Shown: positions 20,450 to 49,452 of the stretch, piece after piece
Layout of the letters: each line of letters begins with the position of its first letter
Numbering within the stretch: position 1 is the stretch's first letter
DNA from: Candidatus Nanoarchaeia archaeon
GTDB lineage: Archaea > Nanobdellota > Nanobdellia > SCGC-AAA011-G17 > GW2011-AR17
Assembly: GCA_028706745.1 (NCBI GenBank)
Contig: JAQTVM010000011.1
Span: forward strand, 1 to 52,399
DNA: 52,399 nucleotides
Direction: 5' to 3'
The notes under the pieces: generated by a model
The model's database searches: none
The model's input: only the letters and a program-made list of their open reading frames with translations
Told to the model about the DNA's origin: nothing
Program-made: the position numbers and the translations under genes

Positions 20450-23284
20450 TTGGTTAAAGACATAAAAGAGGAAGCTAAAAAAAATATTTCTGAACTTGTT
20501 GGCAGATTTAAGAAGTTTGAAAGCCAATTTATGGACAGCAGGGAATTTGAAGCGCAAATAAAGCTGATAAATGAGTTATTTGAGGCGCTTGGATGGGATG
20601 TAAGGGGAAAAAAGGATTTTGATGAGGTAAGAAATGAGGTTAAAATAAAGGAGGGAAGAGCGGACTATTCTTTTAAGATAAATGGCGTTACAAAGTTTGT
20701 TCTTGAAGCCAAAAAACCATCTGTAAATATTGATGATAAGAGAACATGGTTCCAAGCCGTAACTTATGGATATAATAAGGGGCTGGCATTTGCAGGGCTT
20801 ACTAATTTTAAAAGATTAATTGTATTTAATGTTGAAAGCGATGAAAAAGATTTGGAAAAAGTCAAAGTTCTCGATTTAACATGTGATGAATTTATTACCG
20901 AATTTGCAAAATTATGGTGGCTTTCAAAAGAAGGGATAGCTAATGGAATTTTAGAAAAAGAAGCCGAACAGCGCGGGGCAAAAAGAAAGCGCCTGCCTGT
21001 GGATGAGCAGTTGTTTAAGGATTTAGTATATTGGAGGAATAAGCTTTACAAAAACATAAAGAAAAATAACCCACGGCTGCCGGAGCAAGAGATTGACGAG
21101 AATATACAAGTTTTGCTTAACAGGCTTATTTTCATTAGGTTCTGTGAGGACAAAGGCTACAGCGAGAAAGTGCTGCTTGAGAATCTGCATTTATGGGAAC
21201 AGGACAAGAAAACAAGCTTGTGGAATTCGCTTAGAGGAATATTTGATCAATTTGATGACGATTATAACAGCGGCTTATTTGAAAAGAGAACCTGCGATAC
21301 GTTTAATATTGATGACAAAGAGTTAAAAGAAATAATCTACGACTTGTATAATGCACAGGAACATTCAATTGCCTATAAGTTTGATGCCTTATCTGCCGAC
21401 ATATTAGGCAGTGTATATGAGCAGTTTTTGGGAAGCATAGCTTATAGGAAAGAGCAGGGTATATACTATACCCCTGCCTATATTGTAGATTATATTATTA
21501 GAAATACTTTATGTGAGATATTAAATAAGAAGCCCATTAATTTAGATAAAATAAGAGTCTTGGATCCTGCTTGCGGTTCTGGCAGTTTTTTGATAAAGGC
21601 ATTAGATTATTTCATAGGATATCAAAATAAAAGAGGAGACATTTCACAAGCAACACTAAGTACAGATAATAGTGAAGTTATGTATTCAAGAAAAGCCAAT
21701 ATCTTAAAAAAGAATATTTTTGGTGTCGACCTCGATCGTAAAGCTGTAGAGATAGCACAGCTTAGTCTTTTTCTCAAAATAGCAGAAAATAGAAAAACTT
21801 TGCCCAATATCCATGAGAATATCCAATTAGGCAATTCTCTTATAGATAACAAAAGCATTGATGAAAATGCATTCGAATGGGACAAACAATTTAAGTCTGT
21901 TATTGGAGAAGGTGGTTTTAATGCAATTATTGGAAATCCGCCTTATATTGCTTGGTCTAAGATAAATAGACAGGAAAGAAGATTCTTTGACAAAGGAACT
22001 TACTTAAATATAAATTATAAATGCAGACCTAACCATGAAGATGCACAACCAAATTATTACCTCTTCTTTATAGTAAGGGGCAACAAGGAATTAAGCTCGG
22101 AAGGTAAATTATCATTCATAATTCCACAAGAATGGTTATACAATGACTATGCGTTAGATTTTAGAAATTATTTGCTCAACCAATTTGGGAATATAAAGGT
22201 AGTCCAGTTTAATTCTAATTTTAAGGTATTCAAACATTTTAGTGAAACAGTAGGCACTAATTCATTGATAATTATTTTATCGAAGAAAGGTAACCAGGAA
22301 TTAGATTATGGGTATATAGGAGATATGGATGAAAGTATAGTAAAACAAAAATTAGCAACAAACTCGTTCGATATAAAATTAACAAAAAAATATAAAGAAA
22401 TGTATAACACTAGATGGAAATTCAATAACATAAGGATTGAAAATATAAGAAATAAGATTTCAGGTCTTAAACAAATTAGTTTGTTACAGGATAAATCTTA
22501 TTTTGAAGTCAAGGGCGGATTTCAACCACCTGTAGAGCAATCTAAAAATTTTGAGATGAGTTTAAGCGAGTATAAACAGCTCAATCCTAAAGAAAAAGGC
22601 ATTGTTTTCAATTTAGTATTTGATGCTAAATCAATAAAAAAATATTCGCCTATTCAAAAAGGCAAATTTTGGATAATAGCGAATGATATAGGCACAGAAA
22701 ACGAATTAAAGAAAGAATATCCATCCATTTTTAAAATTCTCTCAGATAAACTAATAAAACATAATAAAGAATGGTGGCATTTCCCAAATATCAGAAATTT
22801 TGAAATAATAAAAAGTTGTAATCTTAAAATTTTATCCCCTCGAACTGGTAAAGGACCTTCATTTACATTGGATGAGTATAAATCTGTGTTTAAAGGCACA
22901 AATACGATGATTATATCAAAAGAGCTAAATGCAAAATATATACTAGGCATACTTAATAGCCGTCTTTCAGATTTTTGGTATTCTACTTCAGGAAATGAGT
23001 ATCATGGCGGTAAAACTAAAAAGTATGAGCCTGATAAAGTAAAAAGAGACACAATCCCTATAAAAATTGTTTCAGAAACAGAACAACAACCATTTATCAA
23101 ACTGGTAGAAAGAGAATTATCTCTTAATAAACAGCTTGGTGCAATTGAAGGCAATAGTATAGACACAAAGAAAAAGCTAAAAGAAGAAATCGAAAAGATA
23201 GAAGCAGAAATAGACGAACTCGTCTACAAACTCTACGGAATAACTGATTCTGAAAAGAAGATTATAGAAGAAAGCCTGAAATGA
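20450..23284 (+). CDS. Type IIG restriction-modification enzyme (Eco57I-like)
   Basis: 944 residues, TTG start 2 nt after the previous stop with GGGGAG upstream. Residues 1-120 hold a PD-(D/E)xK nuclease (GRADYSFK then FVLEAKKP). A helical connector follows, then an adenine methyltransferase core: motif I LDPACGSGSFL at about 371-381 and motif IV GNPPYIAW at about 494-501. The C-terminal 250 residues form the target-recognition domain, and the end is a coiled coil (EEIEKIEAEIDELVYKLYG). One polypeptide thus cuts and methylates DNA. The gene is AT-rich relative to its surroundings, which points to transfer. Confidence 0.92.
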   Translation: MVKDIKEEAKKNISELVGRFKKFESQFMDSREFEAQIKLINELFEALGWDVRGKKDFDEVRNEVKIKEGRADYSFKINGVTKFVLEAKKPSVNIDDKRTWFQAVTYGYNKGLAFAGLTNFKRLIVFNVESDEKDLEKVKVLDLTCDEFITEFAKLWWLSKEGIANGILEKEAEQRGAKRKRLPVDEQLFKDLVYWRNKLYKNIKKNNPRLPEQEIDENIQVLLNRLIFIRFCEDKGYSEKVLLENLHLWEQDKKTSLWNSLRGIFDQFDDDYNSGLFEKRTCDTFNIDDKELKEIIYDLYNAQEHSIAYKFDALSADILGSVYEQFLGSIAYRKEQGIYYTPAYIVDYIIRNTLCEILNKKPINLDKIRVLDPACGSGSFLIKALDYFIGYQNKRGDISQATLSTDNSEVMYSRKANILKKNIFGVDLDRKAVEIAQLSLFLKIAENRKTLPNIHENIQLGNSLIDNKSIDENAFEWDKQFKSVIGEGGFNAIIGNPPYIAWSKINRQERRFFDKGTYLNINYKCRPNHEDAQPNYYLFFIVRGNKELSSEGKLSFIIPQEWLYNDYALDFRNYLLNQFGNIKVVQFNSNFKVFKHFSETVGTNSLIIILSKKGNQELDYGYIGDMDESIVKQKLATNSFDIKLTKKYKEMYNTRWKFNNIRIENIRNKISGLKQISLLQDKSYFEVKGGFQPPVEQSKNFEMSLSEYKQLNPKEKGIVFNLVFDAKSIKKYSPIQKGKFWIIANDIGTENELKKEYPSIFKILSDKLIKHNKEWWHFPNIRNFEIIKSCNLKILSPRTGKGPSFTLDEYKSVFKGTNTMIISKELNAKYILGILNSRLSDFWYSTSGNEYHGGKTKKYEPDKVKRDTIPIKIVSETEQQPFIKLVERELSLNKQLGAIEGNSIDTKKKLKEEIEKIEAEIDELVYKLYGITDSEKKIIEESLK

Positions 23285-26945: not shown

Positions 26946-27491
26946 ATGATACAGCGAAACAAGCTAAATATAATGGGATTATTCTTTGAAGAGCCAGCAA
27001 GAAATTTTTATCTTAGGGAAATTAGCCGCCTTACAGGCATAGCTGTAATGAGCGCAAGAAAATATCTTATTGAACTTGAGAAAGAAGGGTTGCTCCTTAA
27101 AGATAAAAGCACCCTTTACCCCAGCTACAAGGCAAAAGACACGAGCACGCTGTTCCGCGCTTACAAGCAGCATGCAATGATTCTTTTTATACATCAGTCG
27201 GGGCTCATTGACTATCTTGAAAAAGCCACATTGCCAAGATGCATAATCCTTTTTGGAAGCGTCAGAAAAGGCGAATATACAAAAAAGAGCGACATAGACA
27301 TTTTCATACAAGCGCCTAAACAGGAATTAGGGTTGGCTAAATTTGAGAGAATATTAAAGCATAAGATAAGCATTTTATTTGAGCCGGATTTAACAAAGCT
27401 GAACGAAGAATTATTAAATAACCTAATCAACGGAATCGTGCTATACGGAAATTTAAGGATAAGGGGGCAAAAATGGCAGGAAAAGAAATAA
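26946..27491 (+). CDS. Winged-helix plus minimal nucleotidyltransferase protein, second pair
   Basis: 181 residues. A winged helix (LREISRLTGIAVMSARKYLIELEKEG is the recognition region, residues about 19-44) is followed by a MNT domain with LFGSVRKGE and KKSDIDIFIQ (about 101-122). Same architecture as the protein at 10340-10909 but clearly diverged. It overlaps its HEPN partner by 19 nt. Probable antitoxin that both adenylylates the partner and regulates the promoter; inferred from HepT/MntA. Confidence 0.8.
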   Translation: MIQRNKLNIMGLFFEEPARNFYLREISRLTGIAVMSARKYLIELEKEGLLLKDKSTLYPSYKAKDTSTLFRAYKQHAMILFIHQSGLIDYLEKATLPRCIILFGSVRKGEYTKKSDIDIFIQAPKQELGLAKFERILKHKISILFEPDLTKLNEELLNNLINGIVLYGNLRIRGQKWQEKK

Positions 27492-27919
27492 TGTCGTGGG
27501 ACATATGCATAAAAGAGCATATTGATAAGATTGAGCCTGATAAAGATAAGGCGCAATCATTGCTTAAAATGGCTATGCTGAGATATGAATTCTGGAATAA
27601 CATTAAATTTGACAAGAAGTATACATCAATTGCTGTTGACGGGTATTATGAAGTGATAAAAGAACAGCTTACCGCACTGCTCTATACAGCAGGATACAAG
27701 TCCGATAACCATGAGTGCCTCATCTCTTTTCTTAAAAAGAATTATTCGCACTTATCTTATGAGATAGGCATTATCCACCAGCTTAAAGGGATAAGAAACG
27801 ATATTGATTACAGGGGATTCTTTGTAAATGCCGAATATCTTGAAAGGAATAAGCTGGAATTAAAGCATATAATTGAAGTTCTTAAGGAAGAAATAGAAAG
27901 AAAACTTAAAGAGGAATAA
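27473..27919 (+). CDS. HEPN-domain protein, second MNT/HEPN pair
   Basis: 148 residues with helices SIAVDGYYEVIKEQLTALLY and HQLKGIRNDIDYRGFFV. The RNDIDY segment gives the same RNxxxY signature as the first HEPN protein, in place of Rx4-6H. It is coupled to the MNT gene and is followed 3 nt later by a small membrane protein. Probably the toxin-like half of the pair. Confidence 0.75.
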   Translation: MAGKEIMSWDICIKEHIDKIEPDKDKAQSLLKMAMLRYEFWNNIKFDKKYTSIAVDGYYEVIKEQLTALLYTAGYKSDNHECLISFLKKNYSHLSYEIGIIHQLKGIRNDIDYRGFFVNAEYLERNKLELKHIIEVLKEEIERKLKEE

Positions 27920-28907: not shown

Positions 28908-30065
28908 CTATTTGTTGCGCTGATAAGCAGATTTTACTTGATCTAATGTAGCAAGACGCTTCTGCCTAAGTTCATCAATAAATTTATTCGTATCATATAG
29001 CAATATAGAGGAAAGATTTTTAAATGATTTTACAATCCCTAAACGCCTAAGAATTTCCATATTTCTTTTTTTATTAAGTTCTGATTCTAAAAAATGCATT
29101 GATGCATGAAAATCCCGTTTTGGGTTTAAAAATTTAGCCCAAAAATTAAAATAATGCTTAGCTAAAGTCTTACTATCAAAATTGTTCTCTACAGATAGGG
29201 GCTCTAAATATTTTTTGAATTGCCCATATTGGTTGACATGTGATTCAGTCATGCCGGAAGCAGCCAATAATGTTGCAGTCCTAACAGAGTCCATTATTGC
29301 ATATTGATTTTCAAAAGAAAAAGGTTTAGGTCCTATTATATCTGAAAAGTTAGGGGTTTTTGCTGCCGCCCATAACACTCTTTCCAGACCAAATCCTAAG
29401 TCGCTAATCTGTATATCCGGCTTGTCTTTAAAGAATATTAAACCCGCATCCCCTAATTCAAGACCCCCATAATAAAATTTTAAAACCACGCCGTCTGTAT
29501 TTGCCCAAAAACCTGACTTTCTGCTATAATTCTTATTTAGTTTAAGAGAAAAGTCCCCCATATACAGCCCCATACTTGACAGAAAATTCATCCAACAGTC
29601 TATAGCAGAAATATGTTCTTCGAGGCTTGCCCCGCATTGCACAGTACAAATATTGACAAAAGAAGACACATTGCCTTCTCCAACACTTTCCCTAAATTTT
29701 GTCCTAATCACAGGTTGAGATATAAAATATTTTTGAGTATCAATGCCTTTCTTACCATGGAAATAATCACAAAAGAACTGTATTCCTGCAACAACAAATA
29801 GGGTGTCTCCCTTGTAATTATTTATTACTGAATCCCTGTGTCCTTCTATAAAGCCAGCATCAGAAAAGAACCTATTCATCTTATAGACAAATTGATCCAA
29901 TGTAACAACACCTTTCTTTTTGCTATAGTCTAAAAAATCAAGCCCTGAAGAAGAATTAAAAGCCCTCTGCTTTGAATACCCTATGTCGCCAGACCCCAAT
30001 GCTGTCTTATTCCAATCATGCCCTGATAAATATTTATCAATAGTGCCTATAATTTGGGATTTCAT
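28908..30065 (-). CDS. Stand-alone alanyl-tRNA-synthetase catalytic-domain paralogue
   Basis: 385 residues matching the class II core of archaeal AlaRS. FISQPVIRTKFRESVGE corresponds to the ISQPCIR-DNVG motif 2 region, keeping arginine R121. LELGDAGLIFFKDK matches the LEVATLVF stretch, and DLGFGLERVLWAAAKTP (about 222-238) is motif 3 with R229. The editing and C-Ala domains are missing (full enzymes are near 900 residues). RH of the usual GRHLTSFEM is NV here. It likely still makes an aminoacyl-adenylate, but the acceptor is unknown. It overlaps the AdoMet synthetase gene by 4 nt (ATGA). Confidence 0.72.
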   Translation of the reverse strand: MKSQIIGTIDKYLSGHDWNKTALGSGDIGYSKQRAFNSSSGLDFLDYSKKKGVVTLDQFVYKMNRFFSDAGFIEGHRDSVINNYKGDTLFVVAGIQFFCDYFHGKKGIDTQKYFISQPVIRTKFRESVGEGNVSSFVNICTVQCGASLEEHISAIDCWMNFLSSMGLYMGDFSLKLNKNYSRKSGFWANTDGVVLKFYYGGLELGDAGLIFFKDKPDIQISDLGFGLERVLWAAAKTPNFSDIIGPKPFSFENQYAIMDSVRTATLLAASGMTESHVNQYGQFKKYLEPLSVENNFDSKTLAKHYFNFWAKFLNPKRDFHASMHFLESELNKKRNMEILRRLGIVKSFKNLSSILLYDTNKFIDELRQKRLATLDQVKSAYQRNK

Positions 30066-31297: not shown

Positions 31298-31450
31298 AGC
31301 AAAACTAGATATATTCTCCCTTTAAATACTTTTCCATCTTAAAGTAGTAACATACTAATATTGGAATTTATCATAATAAACTTACGTTTAAATATCGAAA
31401 TCTTATTAAGCAGACAAATCATTATAATTCCATAACAAGAGGTGGTTTTA

Positions 31451-31867
31451 ATGCACAGTGACCTTATAATGCCGGAAGAAGAAAAAGCGCTTTTCAATCA
31501 GCTGGTTGAATACTACAAAAAACTGTATCCCGGAATAGGATTCAAAAAAGTTGAAATTCTTTTGAAGCCGGAAGAGATTGCAGGCATTATATATACATAT
31601 CCCGGAGAAGAGACAGAAGCGACATTCAGGGAGGAAGTGCAGATAATTGCTGATTCATTAAAAAACGGGTATGACACTCCTGTAATAATCCTGAGAAAGC
31701 TGAAAGACAGGAAAGACATTCTTCTTGACGGGCATCGCAGATTGAAGGTTGCCTTTGACAAGAAGATTGGGTGGAAAGCTTTAGCCATGGTGCCTGACAG
31801 GGAAGTCCAGTTTGGCATAGAGAAGATGGGGAAGGGGAAGATAGCGGATATATTCAAAAAGACCTAA
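31451..31867 (+). CDS. ParB/sulfiredoxin-like domain protein
   Basis: 138 residues. The C-terminal half has the ParB/Srx-fold signature: DTPVIILRKLKDRKDILLDG and GHRRLKVAFDKKIGWKALA. The N-terminal half is helical. Start at ATG 31451 with GAGGTGG upstream is preferred over GTG 31442. Members of this fold include nucleases, kinases and partition proteins; this one is too short for a full ParB. A copy of its 3' end recurs 2.66 kb downstream, see the repeat entries. Confidence 0.65.
   Translation: MHSDLIMPEEEKALFNQLVEYYKKLYPGIGFKKVEILLKPEEIAGIIYTYPGEETEATFREEVQIIADSLKNGYDTPVIILRKLKDRKDILLDGHRRLKVAFDKKIGWKALAMVPDREVQFGIEKMGKGKIADIFKKT
31755..31830 (+). repeat. Direct repeat, left copy (in the ParB-like gene)
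   Basis: 76 nt starting TTGACAAGAAGATTGGGTGG, identical except at two positions to 34417-34492. It covers codons for DKKIGWKALAMVPDREVQFG. Left boundary of a possible 2.6-kb insertion. Confidence 0.85.
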
Positions 31868-31877
31868 GCCTTTTTGG

Positions 31878-31905
31878 ATATCCGAAAGCAGTAGCTTTCG
31901 AATAT
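31878..31905. terminator. Hairpin between convergent genes
   Basis: CGAAAGC-AGTA-GCTTTCG is a perfect 7-bp stem (31883-31900), extended by ATAT/ATAT with one mismatch and followed by ATTTTTG. It lies between the ParB-like gene and the 2H gene, which converge. Probable bidirectional terminator. Confidence 0.5.
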
Positions 31906-31929
31906 TTTTGGAAAGCATAATAAGAAAGC

Positions 31930-32418
31930 TTAAATATCATAAGTAATCTTTCTGATTTTTATTTCTGTTGGGAAATTAATCTTGTGATTCAGACGAAAAT
32001 TTGGCTTTAAGTAAGCCAAGGTAAGATGAGGCTTAAAATTTTTATGCTGGACATTAATTTCGTAGGGGAACTTTTTGAAAGTATCATGCACTTTTTTAAG
32101 TTCCTTATTTTTATCTAACACTTTTAAGCATAATAATTTGTATTGATTCTTATATCCAGATATAAAAAAAACCTTTCCAAGCTCAAGATTGTTCAATTTA
32201 ATTTTCCTGATATTCTCATTCAATTTATTTTTATTTATCTCTTTATCAATAAGCCCATAAAATAAAGTCAGATGCATCTTTGATGAAACATCACCCTTAA
32301 TATAGTCGATAACATCCGAATAGAAAAAATCCTCTTCTTTGCAAATATTTTTAATAGCTTTCTTAATAGGCAAAACATCCTTCTTTTGCAATTCTGCCAT
32401 GATATATCCATATTCCAT
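31930..32418 (-). CDS. 2H phosphoesterase (LigT/2'-5' RNA ligase-like)
   Basis: 162 residues carrying the two HxT motifs of the 2H superfamily: MHLTLFYG at about 68-75 and PHLTLAYL at about 130-137. These proteins hydrolyse 2',3'-cyclic phosphate or 2'-5' bonds in RNA and nucleotides. The fold and length fit LigT/CPDase. It ends a three-gene run after the tandem nucleotidyltransferase protein. A role in RNA-end or cyclic-nucleotide chemistry is likely. Confidence 0.82.
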   Translation of the reverse strand: MEYGYIMAELQKKDVLPIKKAIKNICKEEDFFYSDVIDYIKGDVSSKMHLTLFYGLIDKEINKNKLNENIRKIKLNNLELGKVFFISGYKNQYKLLCLKVLDKNKELKKVHDTFKKFPYEINVQHKNFKPHLTLAYLKPNFRLNHKINFPTEIKIRKITYDI

Positions 32419-32419
32419 T

Positions 32420-32569
32420 TTATGACCTCAATAATATTTGGGGATAATCCTGCCTATCTATTTTATCAAATAAAAGCATCGACCCCTTTATATATGTTTT
32501 AATCTTGTTTTTATATTTTGGGTATTTAGATTCAAGTATCTTCTTCAAAACAACATCATTGGTTTCCAT
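32420..32569 (-). CDS. 49-residue protein between nucleotidyltransferase and 2H genes
   Basis: A minus-strand reading frame METNDVVLKKILESKYPKYK onward to PQILLRS, filling the gap between its neighbours: it starts 28 nt after the upstream stop, and its stop is 1 nt before the 2H start. Highly basic, one predicted helix plus a hydrophobic turn (SMLLFDKI). No Shine-Dalgarno is obvious. Tight packing is the main support. No family is recognised. Confidence 0.45.
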   Translation of the reverse strand: METNDVVLKKILESKYPKYKNKIKTYIKGSMLLFDKIDRQDYPQILLRS

Positions 32570-32596
32570 TTTAAATCCAGCAATAGAGCATAAAGC

Positions 32597-34306
32597 CTAT
32601 ATTTTAGGGTTATCGGCATCTATAGTAAACCAAATATTATAATTGCTTTTCCTTATATCCTCAAAGATTTCTATCCATTCATCTCCACTATTAGCCGCAG
32701 CCGCATAAACCCGTTCTCCGTCTATTAAACAGCAAGTTCCTATTATTCCCCTCCTGCGTTCAAATACTATTGAGCTTATTCCCTTTAGAGATGCCTTTGA
32801 TTCATCAAAAAGACAGCCATAAGACTCTCTTAATAAATGTTTAATCTGCAATTTATCATTATCAGAAATGTCAGTAATTAACATGGAAGTATATTTGGAA
32901 TTAGTCGTTTTGAGTTTTTTATATTTTAAAGCATAATCTCTTAAAAATTCCTTCCCTCCATCTATAGACTCAAAAAAAGCGTAGGTTTGTTCTGAGTTTA
33001 AGTTATTGCAGATTGTATCTATTTTATAGTCCAATCCGGGCCGCTCTTTGATTAACCTGATAATAGCGGGGATGCTTGAAGCTATAACTTCTCGAGTCTC
33101 CGCAGGAATGGCAATCTCAGGAAGTCTCGATATTTGTTTCAAAGCGCTTATAACTACTAAGGGAGATTCTCTTGCTCTGTCAGAATTACAGAATTTAAGT
33201 TCCCTGCGCTTAATTTCATCTATTATACTGGGATTTTCAAGTTTATGGGATTGTAAATTATAGACACAACAATTAAAATTTACATCCCCTTTGCCAATCA
33301 TTGCATTTATATCTGATTCTTGCATTTCGCTTATGTCTATATCTACATTTCCATAATAAATGCTAATTGCCTTAGCCCTCTCATTAACATAATATTCAAA
33401 ATTTTCCAAATCTAATTTTTCAGTTTTATGGTACCCTTTTCTTTCAAGTATCCCAATCATATTCTCAAGAGATAATTTGGTCTTAAAATCAAAATCTTTT
33501 GCAGGTTTATCTAATATTATATCCCTTATAAAACCACCCACCAGATAAATCACGGGATTACCAAGCAACGCCCTTATGTTATCAATTGGTGCTTTTTTAT
33601 CTATTTGTTTTTCAATGCTTAAAAGTTCCTGAAGATTTTCTCGGTCATCAGAAGGATAAATTAAATATTTATCAATGCCACAAATATGCAAATCCCTCAA
33701 TATATTAAGACGGGAATCATAATCTAAAGCTAAAATTTTCCACATTTCACTGATATATTCTGCATCTTTTAGAAGATACGCTTTATTTATTGAAGAATCC
33801 AAAGTTGATTGTTCAATATCAAACTTTAATTCACCAGCAAACCTAAATACCCTTAATATTCTACTCGGGTCTAAACTTAATTTTTTATCTGGCTCATTAA
33901 TTTTGATTATTCGGTCCTCCAGATCTTGTAAAGACCCCAAATAATCATAAAAATTGCCATAATTGTCCAAACACATGCAGGATAATGTAATATCCGAATT
34001 ATTAATTGTATGCTCAACATTAGTAGAAGCTGTAAAATCATATATCTGCGAACCAATTTTCAATTTTATTGTTGACACCTCATCCCATCTTCCAATAACC
34101 AATTGAGGAAAATCATTTTGAATTTGATTAAGGTCAAAATTTCCTAAAAAATCATAGTCTGAAATAGTAATATTCCTTCCCAGAATAAAATCCCTTATTT
34201 TTCCGCCTCTTAGATATATCGGTGCTGCCTTTGTTTTTGTAATTCGTTTGGCTATTTCAAAATGTAATTCCATTTCTTTGTTTAATCTTTCAAAATCTAT
34301 TTTCAT
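32597..34306 (-). CDS. Protein with two tandem poly(A)-polymerase/CCA-type nucleotidyltransferase heads
   Basis: 569 residues. Head 1 (about 25-160) has IYLRGGKIRDFILGRN and the metal pair ISDYDFLG; LSLDPSRILRVFRFAGEL is the RNA-binding/ERhxRxxx segment of the family. Head 2 (about 250-380) repeats the pattern: VIYLVGGFIRDIILDK and AKDFDFKTKL. The last 90 residues (SIVFERRRGIIGTCCLIDG to IWFTIDADNPK) resemble a GNAT fold of the N-acetylglutamate-synthase type, less certainly. Known CCA-adding enzymes have one head. A TATA-like ATATTTAAATATC lies upstream (about 34328-34340). Confidence 0.75.
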   Translation of the reverse strand: MKIDFERLNKEMELHFEIAKRITKTKAAPIYLRGGKIRDFILGRNITISDYDFLGNFDLNQIQNDFPQLVIGRWDEVSTIKLKIGSQIYDFTASTNVEHTINNSDITLSCMCLDNYGNFYDYLGSLQDLEDRIIKINEPDKKLSLDPSRILRVFRFAGELKFDIEQSTLDSSINKAYLLKDAEYISEMWKILALDYDSRLNILRDLHICGIDKYLIYPSDDRENLQELLSIEKQIDKKAPIDNIRALLGNPVIYLVGGFIRDIILDKPAKDFDFKTKLSLENMIGILERKGYHKTEKLDLENFEYYVNERAKAISIYYGNVDIDISEMQESDINAMIGKGDVNFNCCVYNLQSHKLENPSIIDEIKRRELKFCNSDRARESPLVVISALKQISRLPEIAIPAETREVIASSIPAIIRLIKERPGLDYKIDTICNNLNSEQTYAFFESIDGGKEFLRDYALKYKKLKTTNSKYTSMLITDISDNDKLQIKHLLRESYGCLFDESKASLKGISSIVFERRRGIIGTCCLIDGERVYAAAANSGDEWIEIFEDIRKSNYNIWFTIDADNPKI

Positions 34307-34416
34307 TTCTATACCCCTAAAACCTGATATTTAAATATTTTAATCCTTTATAAACTTTATTATTTTAGCTACTTAATAATAGTTATTATTTTAGTTAAGA
34401 CTGCGCTAGCATCCAC

Positions 34417-34492
34417 TTGACAAGAAGATTGGGTGGAAAGCTTTAGCCATGGTTCCTGACAGGGAAGTCCAGTTTGGCATTGAGAAGATGGG
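34417..34492 (+). repeat. Direct repeat, right copy
   Basis: Matches 31755-31830 at 74 of 76 positions, same orientation. Similarity begins abruptly at TTGACAAG, after the unrelated GCTAGCATCCAC. Confidence 0.85.
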
Positions 34493-34529
34493 AAAAGGCA
34501 GGATTAAGGACGTTTTTGGCAGGAAATGA
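34417..34529 (+). pseudogene. Displaced 3' end of a ParB-like gene
   Basis: Reads in frame DKKIGWKALAMVPDREVQFG, then IEKMGKGRIKDVFGRK and stop TGA at 34527-34529. It parallels the end of the protein at 31451-31867 (IEKMGKGKIADIFKKT) but with a different last 10 residues. There is an in-frame TAG at 34407-34409 and no start codon, so only a fragment remains. It looks like the original tail of the target gene, replaced by a copy brought in by an insertion, or a broken tandem paralogue. Confidence 0.75.
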
Positions 34530-34599: not shown

Positions 34600-35235
34600 A
34601 TGGGTAAAATGAGATTAATAGGAACAGCAAGAAAACTGGAGGGAATGAATACTATAGAGGGGATAAGCCGCGCAATGGGTATAAACCAGAAAAAAGCAAT
34701 AGAGTTAATGCACAGGATGAGAAAAAAAGGGTTTGTGAAAACAAAAGGAGGGGGAAAACAAAAAAGGTTCTATTATATCTCGCCAGAAAGATTATCTACG
34801 GGGACAAGCCTCTATGAGATTATTAATAAATATGCGCCTTCAGGCGCAAAAGTGCAGCCTATTCATGAATATATAGTGCATGGGCGCAGAGTAACTGAAG
34901 AAGAAGCGCTCATATTTGCAATAGAGTCAGAGAGCATCCGCGCGATTATTGCATCGCTGTCCCTGTTTAAGCATATAACCCAATGGACCCTGCTCAGCAA
35001 GCTTGCTGATAAACCGCTTAAAAGAAAGATTTGCGCCTTATATGGTGTTGCAAAAACTATTTTAAAAGTAAGAAAAATGCCTGAGAGGTTTAAAAAAAGT
35101 GCCGTACCCTGCAAAAAAGACAAATACACTTACATTGCCCGGAAAATAGGCTCGAAGGATTTCAAACAAATAGAAAAAGCATGGAAAGTTTATATTCCGC
35201 TAAATAAAGCGGATTTGGAGGAGTATAAGATATGA
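34600..35235 (+). CDS. Winged-helix protein, partner of a nucleotidyltransferase
   Basis: 211 residues. N-terminal winged helix (TIEGISRAMGINQKKAIELM then RMRKKGFVKTKGGGKQKRF) and a C-terminal helical body of unknown fold (VTEEEALIFAIESESIRAII). It overlaps the next gene by 4 nt (ATGA). The layout matches archaeal antitoxin-plus-nucleotidyltransferase pairs of the AbiEi/AbiEii kind. A TATA-like TTTATATATT lies about 25 nt upstream. Confidence 0.65.
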   Translation: MGKMRLIGTARKLEGMNTIEGISRAMGINQKKAIELMHRMRKKGFVKTKGGGKQKRFYYISPERLSTGTSLYEIINKYAPSGAKVQPIHEYIVHGRRVTEEEALIFAIESESIRAIIASLSLFKHITQWTLLSKLADKPLKRKICALYGVAKTILKVRKMPERFKKSAVPCKKDKYTYIARKIGSKDFKQIEKAWKVYIPLNKADLEEYKI

Positions 35236-35906
35236 TAAATTCAAAACAACAGGAAGGGCTGTTTGCCAATGCAGCTTCAAAGCTAAAAAATAAAATAACC
35301 TGCTATGCGGCAGGCGGAACAGCCATGCTTTTTTACGGGCTAAAGGAAACAACAAAAGATATAGACCTTATTTTTACTGCGGAAAAAGACAGGCAGCAAT
35401 TCATAGATGCCATTCAAGAATTAGGCTACAAAAGCATGAACCCGATAAAAATATACGGCAAAAAGGAAAATAGGCCGATGATGCTCACAAGAGGGGATGA
35501 AAGGTTTGACCTCTTTTTAATAAAAGTCATCTCCTTTTCATTATCAAAAACAATGCAGGAAAGATGCGAACAAACGCACGAATATGGGAGCAAGCTTGTG
35601 CTGAAAATAATGAACCCGCATGATATCCTGCTTATGAAATGCGCAACTGACAGGATAAAAGACAGGGAAGATGCAAGAAGCATTATCGAAAACATAAAGA
35701 TAAATTGGAAAAGTATAATCGACGAGGCGAACAGCCAAGTAATCCACGGGCATGAGAAAAAGGCAGTTTTTGAACTTGGCTGCTTTTTGGACGAGATTAA
35801 GACAGAATTGAATGTTAATGTCCCGCAATGGGTTATTGAAGAGTTGTATTCCCTGCTGGAAGAGGAAACAAAAAAGCAGGTTAAAAATCCCAACAAGAAA
35901 GCTTAA
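35232..35906 (+). CDS. DUF6036/AbiEii-like nucleotidyltransferase
   Basis: 224 residues. YAAGGTAMLFYGLKETTKDID is the nucleotidyltransferase core, with GG and the DxD pair (KDIDLIF) at about residues 25-46; RFDLFLIKV and NPHDILLMKCATDR complete the family pattern. Toxins of this class add nucleotides to tRNA or other acceptors. Coupled to the preceding winged-helix gene, so the two probably form a type IV-like toxin-antitoxin pair. Confidence 0.75.
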   Translation: MINSKQQEGLFANAASKLKNKITCYAAGGTAMLFYGLKETTKDIDLIFTAEKDRQQFIDAIQELGYKSMNPIKIYGKKENRPMMLTRGDERFDLFLIKVISFSLSKTMQERCEQTHEYGSKLVLKIMNPHDILLMKCATDRIKDREDARSIIENIKINWKSIIDEANSQVIHGHEKKAVFELGCFLDEIKTELNVNVPQWVIEELYSLLEEETKKQVKNPNKKA

Positions 35907-35989: not shown

Positions 35990-36883
35990 ATGGCAAGAAA
36001 GAAGTCAAAGTCATTCGGAAAGCATATTTATGCTTTAATTGCTATCGTCGTTTTGTTGGTGGCGGCAGGGGTTGCAAGCTACGCAACAACTTATACACCA
36101 GGAATGGCGGCGCATGCAAAATTGTATAGTGATGAGATTTGGGGAAAAAGCGGGAATGAGATTATAGTTAAAGATAATCTAAAGCTTGATGGGATGGCTG
36201 CAGCAGGACCAGCATTACTGGATGTAACTGCATCCGAAGTAGCGGGAGCAAGAAATGCCATTAAAGCTTATATTGACTCTACTTACACTGCAATAGAAGG
36301 CTCAAGCAGAAGAGGAATAGGCGTAAAAGGGATAGTTGAATCCTTAGGGGCAGGCGTTGAAGGCACTAATACAGGCGCATCAACAACAGGAAAGCTCGGC
36401 ACTACGAATGCAGGCGTTGAAGGAACAGTAGACAGTGCAACTGGTTTTGGAGTTTATGGAACACAAGCAGCTGGTGGATATGCAATCAAAGGTTTAAATA
36501 CTGACTCAGGCAATTATGGGGAAATCGGTGGCGTTACCACTGGCGTGAAAGGATATGGTTCGAGTTATGGTGTTCAAGGAAGCACAGGACTTAGCGGAAT
36601 GGCTGGTGTTGATGGCTTCACTTCAAATCCAGCAGGATATGCAGGAAAGTTCTCAGGTGGTAAGGGCTTGTATGCAAGCAAGATAGAGTTTGGGAGCGCT
36701 GCTTTTGGCAATACAAATGGATACTTGGTTTTAGGTGCACTTAATCCGGTATCATGTAAATCAGCATGTGAAACACATGGTGGCCCTACATTTACATGCA
36801 GATTTGCGTACCTTGTAGATGGAGTTCCAGCAGGTTGCACTGATACAAGTACACTCAAACCAAGGCACTGCTGGTGCAGTTAA
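35990..36883 (+). CDS. Secreted repeat protein with glycine/valine turns
   Basis: 297 residues. A basic start and one hydrophobic segment (HIYALIAIVVLLVAAGVASY) act as signal or anchor. The body has repeated G(V/I)xG turns (GVKGI, GVEGT, GVYGT, GVKGYG, GVQGS, GMAGVDG), a pattern of beta-helix or tail-fibre-like surface proteins, and ends in a cysteine-rich segment (SCKSACETHGGPTFTCRF, then CWCS). AGKFSGGKGLYAS resembles the protein at 40795-41367. Likely surface-exposed. A pyrimidine-rich run after the stop (36890-36930) is a probable terminator. Confidence 0.75.
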   Translation: MARKKSKSFGKHIYALIAIVVLLVAAGVASYATTYTPGMAAHAKLYSDEIWGKSGNEIIVKDNLKLDGMAAAGPALLDVTASEVAGARNAIKAYIDSTYTAIEGSSRRGIGVKGIVESLGAGVEGTNTGASTTGKLGTTNAGVEGTVDSATGFGVYGTQAAGGYAIKGLNTDSGNYGEIGGVTTGVKGYGSSYGVQGSTGLSGMAGVDGFTSNPAGYAGKFSGGKGLYASKIEFGSAAFGNTNGYLVLGALNPVSCKSACETHGGPTFTCRFAYLVDGVPAGCTDTSTLKPRHCWCS

Positions 36884-42211: not shown

Positions 42212-44488
42212 CTATGCTTTTACCTTAAAACCAAGATATTCCTCTTCAAGCGCCTCGCAAACAATGTTTTTTGCGCAGGAATTGCAGTAGCCGTATCTTG
42301 AAACAAGCTCCCAAAACATTGAGGCAATTGTATCCTTAACCTCATACGACAAGTCGTCAAACTGCCTTGTGCCGAATGACTTCACAGCAAGGTAAAGCTT
42401 GTCGTTAGGCAATAAAAGTTTCTGCCTTTTCTCATCAAAAAGTCCGTCTTCAAGCCTTGAGAAAAGATTGTCATATACAAATTCCATTCCCACAATCATG
42501 CTGCCGCCTTTTTCATTAACCGCTTTTGCTATTTCGCCCACTTTTTTTCCAATGAAAAGCCGCGCTTCTTCACCGGGGCGCATTCCTGACTTCTTTTCAA
42601 TAAACTCCATGAACTCAATGTCAGGCAGGGTTCTCCCCTGCTTTGTGATGAATATTTCAACATTATCCAAATACCTGTCTATTAATTCTTTTCTTTTTTC
42701 AGGAGTAATCCCTATAAACGCCCTTTTTATCTCAGAAGCGACAATGTGCTGGTATTCCGCCTCAACCATCTCAATCATGTTCTCAAACCGGCCATACCCT
42801 TTGTCCTCTCCCTCAATACTCGCAAGCTCGCGCGGCTTCTGTGAAATGAGGTCTGTCAGGGCGTGCTTAATCCTGTGAAAGCTTAGGCAGGATGACACCC
42901 ATCCCTCTTTCTTTTCCTCTGCCTCTTTCCTGCTTATTATGTCTGCAACAACATTCTGCATTGTCCTCGGGGAAATGCCTTCCATCCCCTCGTCAGTGCG
43001 CTCATTCCTTATTGTTCTCTGCACTTTTGAATCAACAAGCATCAGCTTTTCCTCAGGGCTGAGCCTTTTGTGAATAATTCCGTCGTAAAGTTTTGCCTTT
43101 ACAAGCGGCGACATGCTTGTTATTACAGCCCTGGCAGTGTCATCAAACAGCTTGGCGTAGTTCTTCGGCATAGGTTTTTTAAGCCTTGTCATTACATTCC
43201 ACATTGCCATCATATCAACAACATGAGGCATTATGTGCTTTCCGCTTCCTTCATTTTCCTCTGTATAGCCGCACTCGTCAAACTGCCTGCGGTAAATCTT
43301 TGCCTCCTGAGAAGGCTGCAAAATATATCCCACCTCAACAACCCTTGTCCTGTCCATAAGCCCCTTGTTTGTGGAATCTTTCAGCATCCTTTCATAATCT
43401 TCAAGGTTGGTGGTTCCCAAAATCATTACATCAACAAAACCCTGCACGCCGTTGAAATCAATTATGAATTCCTGCACAGCGCTCAAAAGATACTGCAGGT
43501 AAGCCCCGTTTCTCTTGAATATGTCTGAGTAATGTATAATGCCCCTGTTTGCATCAACCCATTTTCCTGAAAATTTGTGCAGTTCTATTCCTTTCAATAA
43601 ATCACCGACATTGTGGTATGACTCTGTCTCCATTGTAATGACAGGCGAATCTCCGTCTGTATTCTTGACAGGCTGTATTGTGGCGCACCCTAGATTGCAG
43701 GTTTCTGAAAATCCAAGCCTTTCAACCTGAATGTGCTGAAATACCTTGTCCAAATCCCCGCTATACTCTTCAAGAAGCCTGTTGTAAATTGTCTGGCAGT
43801 TAAAGCAAAGTTCGCTCTTGAGTATTTTTGCGGGAATCTTGACTTTCTTTCCGCTTTTATTTATTATTTCCTCAAGTATCTGCTTTCTCTGCATTCTCGG
43901 ATAAAGAAGAAGAGGGCTGTCATTCATCTGGCAGGGTATGTTTGCAAGCGCCTCAGAGCGCTTTAAGTGGGCATAGCAGGTGTCATCTTTATGCTCTTTG
44001 GAATTAAAACCTACTTTTTTTCTTCCCTTTGTTATCGGAAAAACCCAGTTGAAAGTGTATACTCCTCCTTCAGGGGTTTTTGAATATTCCTCTGCCCCTT
44101 TTATCAAAATCCTTACAATGCTTGTCTTTGCAGTCGCAACAGGGCCCTTGAGCAGAAAAATTCTCTCGCTTCCCCCTCCTCTCGCGATTGTCTCCATGTT
44201 TGAGACAAGCTGCATAAGCATCCTGTCCTGCCCGTAAACACCTTCCCCGACTCCAAGCTTGTCCTCAAAAAGCCTGTAATGTTTTATCTTCTCGCCGCAG
44301 TCATTAATCTCGTCAAAGCCGAAAAAATGAACCATGTCAGAAACGAACTGCACGCTGGTTCTCATATACTTTCCAGGGTCTTCCTTCATCATCACAAGAA
44401 ACTCGTCAAGGGAGCCTTTCCATCCGACGCCTGCTGAAAATCCGTCGCGGATGCGGGCGTGCACTTTTTGGGTTATATCCTTTACCAT
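42212..44488 (-). CDS. PrkA-type AAA+ serine protein kinase, copy 1
   Basis: 758 residues. Walker A is GPVATAKTS at about 114-122. The sensor region reads VMILGTTNLEDYERMLKD, and the arginine-finger region TNKGLMDRTRVVEVGYIL. A zinc-like CFNCQTIYNRLL lies in the middle, and the end has YCNSCAKN, as in PrkA. PrkA (YeaG) works with a DUF444 and a SpoVR protein in stress and sporulation settings. It overlaps the SpoVR gene by 7 nt. Compared with copy 2 it is longer in the central region. Confidence 0.85.
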   Translation of the reverse strand: MVKDITQKVHARIRDGFSAGVGWKGSLDEFLVMMKEDPGKYMRTSVQFVSDMVHFFGFDEINDCGEKIKHYRLFEDKLGVGEGVYGQDRMLMQLVSNMETIARGGGSERIFLLKGPVATAKTSIVRILIKGAEEYSKTPEGGVYTFNWVFPITKGRKKVGFNSKEHKDDTCYAHLKRSEALANIPCQMNDSPLLLYPRMQRKQILEEIINKSGKKVKIPAKILKSELCFNCQTIYNRLLEEYSGDLDKVFQHIQVERLGFSETCNLGCATIQPVKNTDGDSPVITMETESYHNVGDLLKGIELHKFSGKWVDANRGIIHYSDIFKRNGAYLQYLLSAVQEFIIDFNGVQGFVDVMILGTTNLEDYERMLKDSTNKGLMDRTRVVEVGYILQPSQEAKIYRRQFDECGYTEENEGSGKHIMPHVVDMMAMWNVMTRLKKPMPKNYAKLFDDTARAVITSMSPLVKAKLYDGIIHKRLSPEEKLMLVDSKVQRTIRNERTDEGMEGISPRTMQNVVADIISRKEAEEKKEGWVSSCLSFHRIKHALTDLISQKPRELASIEGEDKGYGRFENMIEMVEAEYQHIVASEIKRAFIGITPEKRKELIDRYLDNVEIFITKQGRTLPDIEFMEFIEKKSGMRPGEEARLFIGKKVGEIAKAVNEKGGSMIVGMEFVYDNLFSRLEDGLFDEKRQKLLLPNDKLYLAVKSFGTRQFDDLSYEVKDTIASMFWELVSRYGYCNSCAKNIVCEALEEEYLGFKVKA

Positions 44489-46011
44489 TTTGTTATCTGC
44501 ACCTGCCCCTGATCATACGAAGCGATAATCGGCTGCCCATCTGCAATTGTTGCTATGTGCACAGGCCTGCCCCAAACGCTGTAAATCCTTGCAAGAGTCC
44601 TGTTCCTGTAAGCATTGTCAAGCTCCTGCCCGTAATACACGTGCCGCAAAAGAAGCTCCTTGGAATTTTCAAAGTTTCCGTCAAAAACCTCTATCACAGG
44701 CTGTCCGCCGTTGATAAGCTGCCCTATAAACCAGTTTCTGACTTCCTGCGGGTCCCTGCTTGATATCTTGTACCAGCTGTCATCATGGTCAAGCTTTGAA
44801 GTGAAGAATTTCATTTTTTGTATGAACTCGTCTGTCATGAAGTCCTGTATGAACTGAACATCATTATATGCTTCCCTTACCGCAAACATTTTCTTGAATC
44901 CGTTCCCTTCTTTTGTGTCCCAATCCATTTTCTTAAGCGCGTCTTTTTCTTCCTCATACTCTTTTCCGTATCTTCCCTTGTCCCATCTTTCCTTTATGTC
45001 ATGGTAAAGCAAAAATCCTAGTTTGTAGGGATTCATTCCTCCGCCGCCTATCACTCCTGCCATTGTCTTTGCATAGTCAATAAGCCCGTTCGGCTCTGCA
45101 AGCCCCATCTCAGTCATCATGTAATCATGCCAGAATGTTGCCCAGCCCTCATTCATTATTTTTGTCTGCCTTTGCGGAAGAAAATAATAAGACTCTTCCC
45201 TGATTATTGAAAGAATGTCTTTTTTCCACTGGGACATTCCGTCGGTATTGTCAATAAGAAATTTCAGCACATCCCTCTCCGGGTTTTTTGGGAACCTGTC
45301 TTCAAGCCCTGCTTTTTCCTCTTCCGGTTCACTTCTTCTTCCGCTAACAAGCGCTTCAATATCAACAAAATCACGCATGTATTCAGGAAGCCCGAACGGC
45401 AGCTTTTCAGAACTGCTTTTGCCTTTTTCTTGCTTGCAGCCCTTGCAGCCTGACCCGCACTTGCAATTTTTTTCCTTTTTCTTTTCTTCCTGCTTTTGCT
45501 TCTGTATGTAGGGCGTGTCCTCAATCAAATATTCAATAGAAAGGCAGTTGTCAATGAACTGCTCAACTTCCTCAAAACCAATCTCGTCAATGTATTTCTC
45601 AATCAGGCGGCGGTGGTTTTCCATTGTGTAAACCATGCTCCTGTCAGTGTGCCTGAAGCAGGCATTGTTCTTGAAAAAGTCAACATGCGCAAAAACGTGC
45701 GCCATTACCATCCTTTGCTGGGTAATGCTATTGTAATGCAATAAGTAAGCCACAGCCGGGTCATTGTTTATGACAAGCTCGTAAAGCCTTGAAAAACCGT
45801 AGCCTGTTTCCTTCCTTGTCCTCTCGTATTCCATGCCAAAACGCCAGTGGCTGTACCTTGTCGGAAATCCTGTGTTTGCGCAAACCTCATTCATTGTATC
45901 CAAATCAACAACATAAAATCCTGTAGGATAAAAATCAAGCCCGCACCCTTTTGCAGCCTCTTCAATCTCATCTTTCATTTTTGCCATGTTAGGCGGAAGG
46001 TGCCAGTACAT
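44482..46011 (-). CDS. SpoVR family protein
   Basis: 509 residues. SpoVR/YcgB signatures are NEGWATFWHDYMMTEM, RFGMEYERTRKETGYG, GGGMNPYKLGFLLYHDIKERW and EVFDGNFENSKELLLRHVYYGQELD. A cysteine-rich insert (CKCGSGCKGCKQEKGKSS, about 192-209) is unusual and may bind metal. The start follows the DUF444 stop by 1 nt. Function in the PrkA/DUF444 set is not known at the biochemical level. Confidence 0.93.
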   Translation of the reverse strand: MYWHLPPNMAKMKDEIEEAAKGCGLDFYPTGFYVVDLDTMNEVCANTGFPTRYSHWRFGMEYERTRKETGYGFSRLYELVINNDPAVAYLLHYNSITQQRMVMAHVFAHVDFFKNNACFRHTDRSMVYTMENHRRLIEKYIDEIGFEEVEQFIDNCLSIEYLIEDTPYIQKQKQEEKKKEKNCKCGSGCKGCKQEKGKSSSEKLPFGLPEYMRDFVDIEALVSGRRSEPEEEKAGLEDRFPKNPERDVLKFLIDNTDGMSQWKKDILSIIREESYYFLPQRQTKIMNEGWATFWHDYMMTEMGLAEPNGLIDYAKTMAGVIGGGGMNPYKLGFLLYHDIKERWDKGRYGKEYEEEKDALKKMDWDTKEGNGFKKMFAVREAYNDVQFIQDFMTDEFIQKMKFFTSKLDHDDSWYKISSRDPQEVRNWFIGQLINGGQPVIEVFDGNFENSKELLLRHVYYGQELDNAYRNRTLARIYSVWGRPVHIATIADGQPIIASYDQGQVQITKW

Positions 46012-46012
46012 T

Positions 46013-47161
46013 TTATTTCCCTGTCCCGAGGAATGTCTTTATTGCAGGCAGGATGTCCTCTTCATCCTGCAGCCTTGATGTGAGAAGCTTGTCCTTGTAT
46101 TTTGATTCGTTGATAAATTTCTCAAGCTCTCCAAGATATGAGCCCATCACTTCCTCTGATTTCGTGCCATACCTTGAAGAATAAAACCACGGAATGTCAA
46201 TCTGGGCATAGCATAGCAGGTTAAGGGCATCCATCAACCCGCCCTTGAGCACAGTGAATTCATCCTCATTGTTTCCCCAGTTGTCTCCGTCTGAAAACTG
46301 GAAAAGGTATATGTTCCAGTCAGAAGGGTCATAGCTTCTCTTGATTATTTTTTGCGCTTCTATGTAGCCTGAAACAATCTTTGTCCCGCCTGAAGTTGTT
46401 GTCTTGTAGAATGTTTCCTCGTCAACCTCGGCAGCAACTGAGTCGTGTATTATGTACCTTGTCTCAAGCCCCTTGTAATGGGAGCGCAGCCATACATCTG
46501 ACCAGAATGCGATTTTTCTTGCAATGCTCTTGTGCCTGTCTGACATGCTGCCTGAAACATCCATCAAATACATAACAACCGCGCTGCTTTCCGGAATGTC
46601 CTTTGTTTTCCATGAGCGGTATCGCATGTCATCTTTCTCAATTGATATTGACGGGTCTTCAGGGTTGTATTCTCCAGAAGCTATCTGCCTTTTCAATGCC
46701 TCGCAGAAAGTTCTTTTTAATCTCAGCAAAGAACGCGGACCTTTTCTTCTAAGCCCGGAATAATGGTCAAACTGCTGGTAGATTGTCCTTTTACCCCTCG
46801 GCTCAATCCTCGGCAGCTTGAGCTCCTCCCCAAGAATCAACGCAAGCTCTTCAACAGTGAGTTCAAGCATGTGCTCCCCTGCTTCTTCTCCTGCCTTTTG
46901 CCCTTCTCCTTCTTCACCCTGGTCAGCCGGGCGCACCTTGTCTCCAATATCTCCCTCTCCCTGTCCAACCCCCCCGTCATCCTCATTGTTTCCGTACTTG
47001 AACCTCGGCAGGTTTATGTGCGGAACAGGAATTACAACCTTGTCCTTGCCTCTTCTGCCAATAAGATCGTCTTTTGCAATAAGGTCTTTCAAATCTTTTC
47101 TTATATTGCCGCGGACAATCTTGTTAAATCGTTCTGCGTCCTTTGGTATATTTGAAACCAT
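46013..47161 (-). CDS. DUF444 (YeaH/YhbH) family protein with VWA-like domain
   Basis: 382 residues. The metal-ion-dependent adhesion site DVSGSMSDRHKSIARKI is in the von Willebrand A-like half, and the N-terminal VRGNIRKDLKDLIAK and acidic EDDGGVGQGEGDIGD stretch are typical of YeaH. CAGGAGAA is positioned for the ATG at 47161. It sits between the two kinase-type genes and SpoVR and is the conserved partner of both. Confidence 0.93.
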   Translation of the reverse strand: MVSNIPKDAERFNKIVRGNIRKDLKDLIAKDDLIGRRGKDKVVIPVPHINLPRFKYGNNEDDGGVGQGEGDIGDKVRPADQGEEGEGQKAGEEAGEHMLELTVEELALILGEELKLPRIEPRGKRTIYQQFDHYSGLRRKGPRSLLRLKRTFCEALKRQIASGEYNPEDPSISIEKDDMRYRSWKTKDIPESSAVVMYLMDVSGSMSDRHKSIARKIAFWSDVWLRSHYKGLETRYIIHDSVAAEVDEETFYKTTTSGGTKIVSGYIEAQKIIKRSYDPSDWNIYLFQFSDGDNWGNNEDEFTVLKGGLMDALNLLCYAQIDIPWFYSSRYGTKSEEVMGSYLGELEKFINESKYKDKLLTSRLQDEEDILPAIKTFLGTGK

Positions 47162-47188
47162 GTTCTCCTGTTTTACTAAAAGAAAGGA

Positions 47189-49273: not shown

Positions 49274-49281
49274 ATAATGTC

Positions 49282-49325
49282 CCTCCTTTTTTAAAAAAGA
49301 GAGCAGTTGCTGTCGCCCTCTTTTT
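49282..49325 (-). promoter_or_regulatory. Leader hairpins near the Shine-Dalgarno of the PrkA operon
   Basis: Plus-strand CCTCCTTTTTT (49282-49292) is followed by AAAAAAGAG (49293-49301), and CTCTTTTT recurs at 49318-49325. In the mRNA the middle segment can pair either with the upstream AAAAAGAG or with the ribosome site AAAAAAGGAGG. A switch is possible but unproven. Confidence 0.3.
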
Positions 49326-49452
49326 CTGTGTTTATTGATGTTAGCGGCATATATAAACCTTTTTAACAAAAAAATAAAAATGATAACAAAGAAGTAGTAA
49401 ATAGTTATATGATAAAATATGACAAAGGAAAATCAAGCATGATTACCCCAAA

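What the first reader, a model, noticed from the sequence alone, without database searches (positions are those of the whole stretch)
31930..34306. Tandem-head nucleotidyltransferase with a 2H phosphoesterase and a 49-residue protein
Seen: one protein carries two GG-(R/x)D...DxD heads of the poly(A)-polymerase/CCA type (SDYDF and KDFDF), with a possible GNAT-like tail, followed by a tightly packed small frame and an HxT/HxT 2H enzyme. Known CCA-adding enzymes have one head. Inference: the pair looks like nucleotide addition and removal on RNA ends or on a nucleotide signal, which would suit an RNA-repair or an antiphage signalling system.
Basis: partly seen in the sequence, partly recalled or inferred. 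Interest (0 to 1): 0.8.

Follow-up and report, generated by a model that had tools for sequence, protein, structure and literature searches.

The report
Two-headed nucleotidyltransferase cargo, possibly decaying
A small archaeal genome carries an inserted two-gene cassette whose main protein joins two copies of the bacterial tRNA-end-adding enzyme head to a GNAT-like tail, beside an RNA-end phosphoesterase; it probably adds or repairs RNA ends as part of a defence-type gene hot spot, but it is known from one genome only and a stop codon cuts its tail.

Summary
The two heads and the 2H enzyme are real. Protein 32597-34306(-) has two above-threshold PolyA_pol (class II CCA / poly(A) polymerase) matches, and the second head models as a class II head and neck at pLDDT about 90 (with a CCA-enzyme alignment). 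The "49-residue protein" is most likely not a protein of its own: it lies in the same frame as the big gene, nine codons after its TAG, and the joined frame completes a GNAT-like domain exactly across the TAG. So there are two genes, the first cut by an in-frame TAG (probably a nonsense mutation; pyrrolysine synthetase is absent). The cassette is an AT-rich insertion (31% GC against 40%), flanked by an 88-bp duplication of the 3' end of a ParB-like gene, and two sister genomes show the empty site. In a third, the same 3' end adjoins candidate defence genes. No tandem-head relative was found in roughly 400-500 related genomes (sensitive search), 50,697 phage records or 72,556 plasmids. Best reading: a horizontally acquired RNA-3'-end nucleotide-adding enzyme with a 2H end-healing partner, carried as defence-type cargo and perhaps decaying. 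Substrate, function and expression are unproven.

The parts
32423..34306 (-). Tandem-head nucleotidyltransferase with GNAT-like tail, 628 codons with one in-frame TAG at codon 570 (569-aa product if TAG stops translation)
   Evidence: Two PF01743 matches; read-through translation; GNAT signal spans the TAG
33587..34306 (-). Head 1 and neck 1 (aa 1-240): GGKIRD, D50/D52, acid D90, motif D LDPSRILR kept; motif B RRD lost (NSD), flexible loop deleted
   Evidence: Alignment with class II CCA enzymes
32957..33550 (-). Head 2 and neck 2 (aa 253-450): GGFIRD, D271/D273, acid of DID kept; motifs B and D lost (KGD, ESPLVVIS)
   Evidence: AF2 pLDDT about 90 over the head; Foldseek class II CCA enzymes
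32423..32941 (-). GNAT-like C-terminal region (aa 456-628), no acetyl-CoA Q/RxxGxG/A motif
   Evidence: hhalign/hmmsearch against 26 GNATs; motif scan; low-confidence model
32597..32599 (-). In-frame TAG, in the helix that follows strand 5 of the GNAT-like domain
   Evidence: PylS absent; TAG ends other genes in the window
32420..32569 (-). The '49-residue protein': most likely the C-terminal end of the same reading frame, not a separate gene
   Evidence: Same frame; 58 open codons P about 0.006; codon usage best in this frame; GNAT match crosses the stop
31930..32418 (-). 2H phosphoesterase (HLT 49, HLT 131), starting 1 bp after the stop of the frame above
   Evidence: TIGR02258 4.5e-7 below cut-off, PF13563 8e-5 below cut-off, phrog_755 7e-7
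31442..31867 (+). ParB-like gene whose 3' end is the insertion site
   Evidence: Intact with the same neighbours in G002 and G003
31755..31842 (+). Left copy of the 88-bp direct repeat (93% identical; 74 of 76 in the core)
34417..34504 (+). Right copy of the direct repeat; runs on to a tail (..DVFGRK, stop at 34529) that matches the empty-site gene of G003
31849..31913 (+). Double-hairpin repeat centred on GGATATCC, which supplies the altered tail and stop of the left copy; about 7 places in the genome

Best explanation
A foreign two-gene cassette inserted at the 3' end of a ParB-like gene in a DPANN-like archaeon. Gene 1 encodes a fusion of two class II (CCA-adding / poly(A) polymerase type) heads with a GNAT-like tail; gene 2 encodes a 2H phosphoesterase. 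Proposed working (inferred): the 2H enzyme opens 2',3'-cyclic phosphates on cleaved RNA, probably tRNA, and head 1, which keeps the metal-binding acids and the nucleotide-selecting motif D but lacks the flexible loop needed to switch to ATP, adds C (or a few nucleotides) to the 3' end. Head 2 keeps only the metal-binding acids and probably binds or positions RNA or acts without base choice. The tail has lost the acetyl-CoA motif and is cut by an in-frame TAG, so it is probably inactive here. Shown: two heads, 2H, insertion, empty site, TAG in frame. Inferred: RNA-end substrate, division of labour, defence role.
For: Two above-cut-off PolyA_pol matches. Motif table, with the roles of motif D and the flexible loop from PMC7014341. 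Class II CCA fold for head 2. 2H motifs and TIGR02258 match. The host has its own class I CCA enzyme, so this is not the housekeeping enzyme. GC, direct repeat and empty site. Cargo beside the same 3' end in G001 matches candidate defence families PDC-S27 (4e-57) and PDC-S01 (5e-28). Phage RNA-repair sets join template-independent nucleotidyltransferases with 2H enzymes (PMC7824862).
Against: Motif B (RRD) is lost in both heads and motif D in head 2, so activity is not assured. There is no body/tail domain to hold tRNA. No relative exists to show that the two genes belong together. The 2H match is below family cut-offs. No PADLOC family matches. The TAG suggests the gene may be decaying.
Confidence: 0.4

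Rival explanations
1. A translation-blocking nucleotidyltransferase toxin: it adds nucleotides to intact tRNA acceptor ends, as MenT toxins do, and the 2H enzyme or another neighbour limits or reverses it.
For: MenT toxins extend tRNA acceptor stems (PMC10435456, abstract); loss of motif B and flexible loop fits relaxed specificity; hot-spot neighbours are toxin/defence types; a DUF6036 (AbiEii-like) nucleotidyltransferase lies next door.
Against: Head type is CCA/PAP, not the MenT/AbiEii type; no antitoxin-like gene inside the cassette; no PADLOC match.
Confidence: 0.22
2. A decaying or dead gene: a former conflict gene, now truncated in its tail and diverged at several motifs, with no present function.
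For: In-frame TAG in a domain whose match continues past it; several lost motifs; single occurrence.
Against: Only one stop in 628 codons; both heads keep their metal-binding acids; the 2H frame is intact with both HxT motifs.
Confidence: 0.22
3. A nucleotide-signal system: the heads make a nucleotide messenger and the 2H enzyme degrades it.
For: 2H enzymes include the anti-CBASS nuclease Acb1 (Pfam Acb1 E 0.0011, below cut-off); CD-NTases appear as weak structural matches (E about 1e-2).
Against: Class II CCA enzymes match far better than CD-NTases (4e-10 against 1e-2); no effector gene; no CBASS model in PADLOC.
Confidence: 0.08
4. Two separate products by design: a 569-aa enzyme plus a 49-aa peptide that docks on it to finish the GNAT-like fold.
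For: The 49-residue frame has its own ATG and is tightly packed.
Against: Same frame, only nine codons after the TAG, with the domain match running straight across; no parallel found.
Confidence: 0.06

Closest known systems
Class II CCA-adding enzymes / bacterial poly(A) polymerases (PF01743)
   Same: Head fold, GGxxRD..DxD motif, third acid, neck; motif D in head 1
   Different: Two heads in one chain, no body/tail domains, no RRD motif B, no flexible loop, GNAT-like tail; found in an archaeon that already has a class I enzyme
Bacterial CC-adding enzymes
   Same: Class II head with the flexible loop deleted (head 1)
   Different: Single head, full motifs A-E, tRNA-binding body
E. coli multifunctional Cca (head plus HD domain; NF008137)
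   Same: Couples nucleotide addition to handling of RNA phosphate ends (recalled for the HD domain, not tested)
   Different: Uses an HD domain in the same chain rather than a separate 2H enzyme; one head
RNA 2',3'-cyclic phosphodiesterase ThpR/LigT, 2H superfamily (TIGR02258)
   Same: Two HxT motifs 82 residues apart, profile match 4.5e-7
   Different: Below the curated cut-off (29.9 against 65.7 bits); paired with a class II nucleotidyltransferase
MenT nucleotidyltransferase toxins
   Same: Nucleotidyltransferase, possible action on tRNA 3' ends
   Different: Different head family, single head, own antitoxin
Defence genes of DPANN archaea (AbiE and candidate PDC systems; PMC12988326)
   Same: Small cargo genes of these types lie at or beside the same insertion site
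   Different: Nucleotidyltransferase-GNAT plus 2H cargo is not in PADLOC

Membership tests
Class II CCA-adding / poly(A) polymerase family | Head with GGxxRD...DxD metal-binding motif | tested here: met
   Both heads
Class II CCA-adding / poly(A) polymerase family | Motif B (RRD) | tested here: not met
   NSD in head 1, KGD in head 2
Class II CCA-adding / poly(A) polymerase family | Nucleotide-selecting motif D (EDxxR) | tested here: inconclusive
   LDPSR in head 1 (D and R kept), ESPLV in head 2 (lost)
Class II CCA-adding / poly(A) polymerase family | Flexible loop between motifs A and B | tested here: not met
   Shortened in both heads in the alignment
Class II CCA-adding / poly(A) polymerase family | Body and tail domains after the neck, single head | tested here: not met
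   Second head starts at aa 253, directly after neck 1
2H phosphoesterase superfamily | Two HxT/S motifs about 80 residues apart | tested here: met
   HLT 49 and HLT 131
ThpR (TIGR02258 equivalog) | Score above the curated cut-off | tested here: not met
   29.9 against 65.7 bits
GNAT acetyltransferase | GNAT fold order including strand 5 and the N..A..LY...GF region | tested here: inconclusive
   Profile match 0.0035, 0 of 200 shuffles; model in the right order but pLDDT 30-68; no Pfam GNAT match
GNAT acetyltransferase | Acetyl-CoA motif Q/RxxGxG/A | tested here: not met
   No match in aa 456-628
Known antiphage systems (PADLOC 2.0.0) | Match to a system protein | tested here: not met
   No family up to E=1 for the three frames
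Pyrrolysine (TAG as sense) code | Pyrrolysyl-tRNA synthetase in the genome | tested here: not met
   Only a 33-bit match against cut-off 178; 12 control genomes ring below the cut-off in the same way
Inserted mobile cargo | Flanking direct repeat, foreign composition, empty site in relatives | tested here: met
   no integrase inside the cassette

The most novel reading that the evidence does not exclude
The cassette represents an undescribed RNA-end conflict system: a two-headed class II nucleotidyltransferase in which one head chooses the base and the other acts as a second catalytic or RNA-gripping site, joined to a GNAT-like domain and a 2H end-healing enzyme, and moved between DPANN archaea as small cargo by way of the 3' end of a ParB-like gene.
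Probability: 0.2. Interest if true: 0.7.

Novelty: new variant of a known kind. Interest (0 to 1): 0.42.

Why it matters
If active, it would be a class II head enzyme with two heads in one chain, in an archaeon that does not need it for tRNA maturation, and would extend the known set of RNA-end enzymes used in microbial conflict. The insertion site is of wider use: the 3' end of one small gene appears to collect candidate defence genes in a genus of small-genome archaea, where defence is poorly known.

Tried and rejected
Pyrrolysine or recoded TAG: rejected (TAG ends four other window genes with short extensions). Separate 49-aa protein: judged unlikely. Tandem-head relatives: none with P0001/P0004 or PF01743 in the order (103 genomes), the phylum sample (371) or the class sample (378), none by peptide patterns in genome contigs or viral contigs (these reach close relatives only), and only single-head partial matches in phages and plasmids. 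L003/L021 (710 aa) looked promising but has a single head of ordinary CCA type. L027 and L028 are short single-head proteins. A single-sequence AF2 model was useless (pLDDT 33.5). Pfam found no GNAT even with the TAG read through. A first GNAT test with only two GNATs was uninformative.

Full report
What is there. The window is contig C6 of a 1.24-Mb genome, 99.85% complete, with an archaeal-type MetK and an archaeal class I CCA-adding enzyme (281.8 bits, above cut-off); from size and gene content I take it to be a DPANN archaeon (inference). On the minus strand, 34306-32597 encodes 569 aa, 32569-32420 is a 49-aa frame and 32418-31930 encodes 162 aa. The large protein has two PolyA_pol matches, 3.1e-17 in total, each above the curated cut-off when scored alone. 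The two halves share little beyond the motif (blastp 0.002 over 33 residues), so the duplication is old or is a fusion of two lines; in PHROGs the best match of the whole protein, with its best stretch in head 1, is a phage tRNA nucleotidyltransferase family (phrog_2244, 2.5e-24), while head 2 matches phrog_1614 (6e-7).

Active sites. Aligned with class II CCA enzymes (residue numbers), head 1 keeps GGKIRD, D50 and D52, an acid at D90 and the nucleotide-selecting motif D (LDPSRILR). It has lost the RRD of motif B and the flexible loop. In class II enzymes motif D templates the incoming base, and the loop switches from CTP to ATP; bacterial CC-adding enzymes lack the loop (PMC7014341). Head 2 keeps GGFIRD, D271 and D273 and the following acid, but has lost motifs B and D. 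The AF2 model of aa 235-628, built with 51 viral CCA enzymes, gives pLDDT about 90 for head 2 and its neck, and Foldseek matches class II CCA enzymes at 4e-10, CD-NTases only at about 1e-2. The alignment used leans the model towards that fold, so this confirms compatibility rather than proving it independently. Head 1 was not modelled with an alignment; its case rests on sequence.

The 49-residue frame. It is in frame with the large gene, nine codons after the TAG. Fifty-eight open codons after the stop have P about 0.006 in a first-order Markov model, and codon usage fits best in this frame (13.0 against at most 7.1 in the other five). Against 26 GNATs of related genomes, the best matching stretch is YNIWFTIDADNPKI-TAG-ALCSIAGFKMETN, across the stop with no gap; 0 of 200 shuffles reach its score (22.9, best shuffle 17.7), and the piece before the TAG alone scores 13.9. 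The low-confidence model puts the TAG in the helix after strand 5, in GNAT order. I therefore read the 49 residues as the end of the same GNAT-like domain. No acetyl-CoA motif is present and Pfam does not call a GNAT, so the domain assignment is tentative. Pyrrolysine is excluded by the lack of PylS, and TAG ends other genes in the window. A nonsense mutation, or an error in the assembly, is the simplest account.

The 2H gene. HLT at 49 and HLT at 131 are the expected pair. TIGR02258 matches at 4.5e-7 and PF13563 at 8e-5, both under their cut-offs, so it is a divergent 2H enzyme. In 371 genomes of the phylum its nearest relatives are 27-38% identical, and none of those genomes is among the PF01743-positive ones of the same sample, so the pairing is so far unique to this genome.

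The insertion. Cassette GC is 30.7% against 40.4% for the window. It lies between a ParB-like gene and an HTH-DUF6036 pair and is bounded by two copies of an 88-bp stretch of the ParB-like gene's 3' end, 93% identical. In sister genomes G002 and G003 the ParB-like gene is followed directly by the relatives of the HTH gene, the DUF6036 gene and the gene at 35990-36883: the empty site. The right copy has the native tail (..DVFGRK, like ..EVFGRK in G003); the left copy's tail is supplied by a double-hairpin repeat, centred on GGATATCC, found at about seven places in the genome. In G001, fragments of the same 3' end adjoin two ATPases matching PDC-S27 and PDC-S01 and a nucleotidyltransferase gene. 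DPANN archaea are reported to be enriched in AbiE and several candidate systems (PMC12988326). No integrase lies in the cassette, so how it moved is unknown.

How widespread. A sensitive search for PF01743 found it in 2 of 103 genomes of the order and 7 of 371 of the phylum sample, and only this genome has two heads in one frame. The protein itself found no full-length relative in 378 genomes of the class. These samples overlap; from the handle numbers I put the total at roughly 400-500 distinct genomes. Phages and plasmids gave only partial single-head matches. Bacterial genomes were searched only by short exact peptides, which reach close relatives, so a bacterial source is not excluded.

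Judgement. The architecture is unusual and the paper searches turned up no description of it, but it rests on one genome, several catalytic motifs are eroded and a stop codon cuts the tail. Best reading: an RNA-3'-end nucleotide-adding enzyme with a 2H partner, carried as defence-type cargo (0.40). Main rivals: a tRNA-extending toxin (0.22) and a decaying gene (0.22).

Noticed in passing
window 31442-34529; G001 contigs C26 (L030), C192 (L031), C145 (L032): The 3' end of a ParB-like gene looks like an insertion hot spot: in G001 several copies of it adjoin candidate defence ATPases (PDC-S27, PDC-S01) and a nucleotidyltransferase gene, and one ATPase ends in the gene's own tail sequence (IEKMARGKAMELFGKK).
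   Followed up: partly
window 31849-31913; G000 C9:23935, C14:14363, C28:3227, C21:87145, C30:17098, C7:42078: A dispersed double-hairpin repeat (TATTC-stem-GGATATCC-stem-GAATA) with variable, self-complementary stems; the reversed control pattern had no match. Two copies lie by ORF6N-like genes and one by a RelE-like gene (names by eye, not tested).
   Followed up: partly
window 34600-35906: HTH (TrmB-like) gene overlapping a DUF6036 / AbiEii-like nucleotidyltransferase, present also in G002 and G003 but not seen next to the G001 cargo.
   Followed up: partly
window 26946-27919: HTH-nucleotidyltransferase gene (Polbeta 9.5e-10) followed by a small gene, arranged like the HEPN/MNT pairs.
   Followed up: no
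window 28908-30065: Gene next to MetK with a weak, partial match to alanyl-tRNA synthetase (tRNA-synt_2c, 1.3e-4, residues 65-123 only); the pair is kept in G002, where the frame looks broken into pieces.
   Followed up: no
window 20450-23284: Eco57I-type restriction-modification methylase (PF07669 1.1e-30) with a TaqI-like specificity domain.
   Followed up: no
window 42212-49369: Two PrkA-type AAA/serine kinase genes close together, one much more diverged than the other.
   Followed up: no
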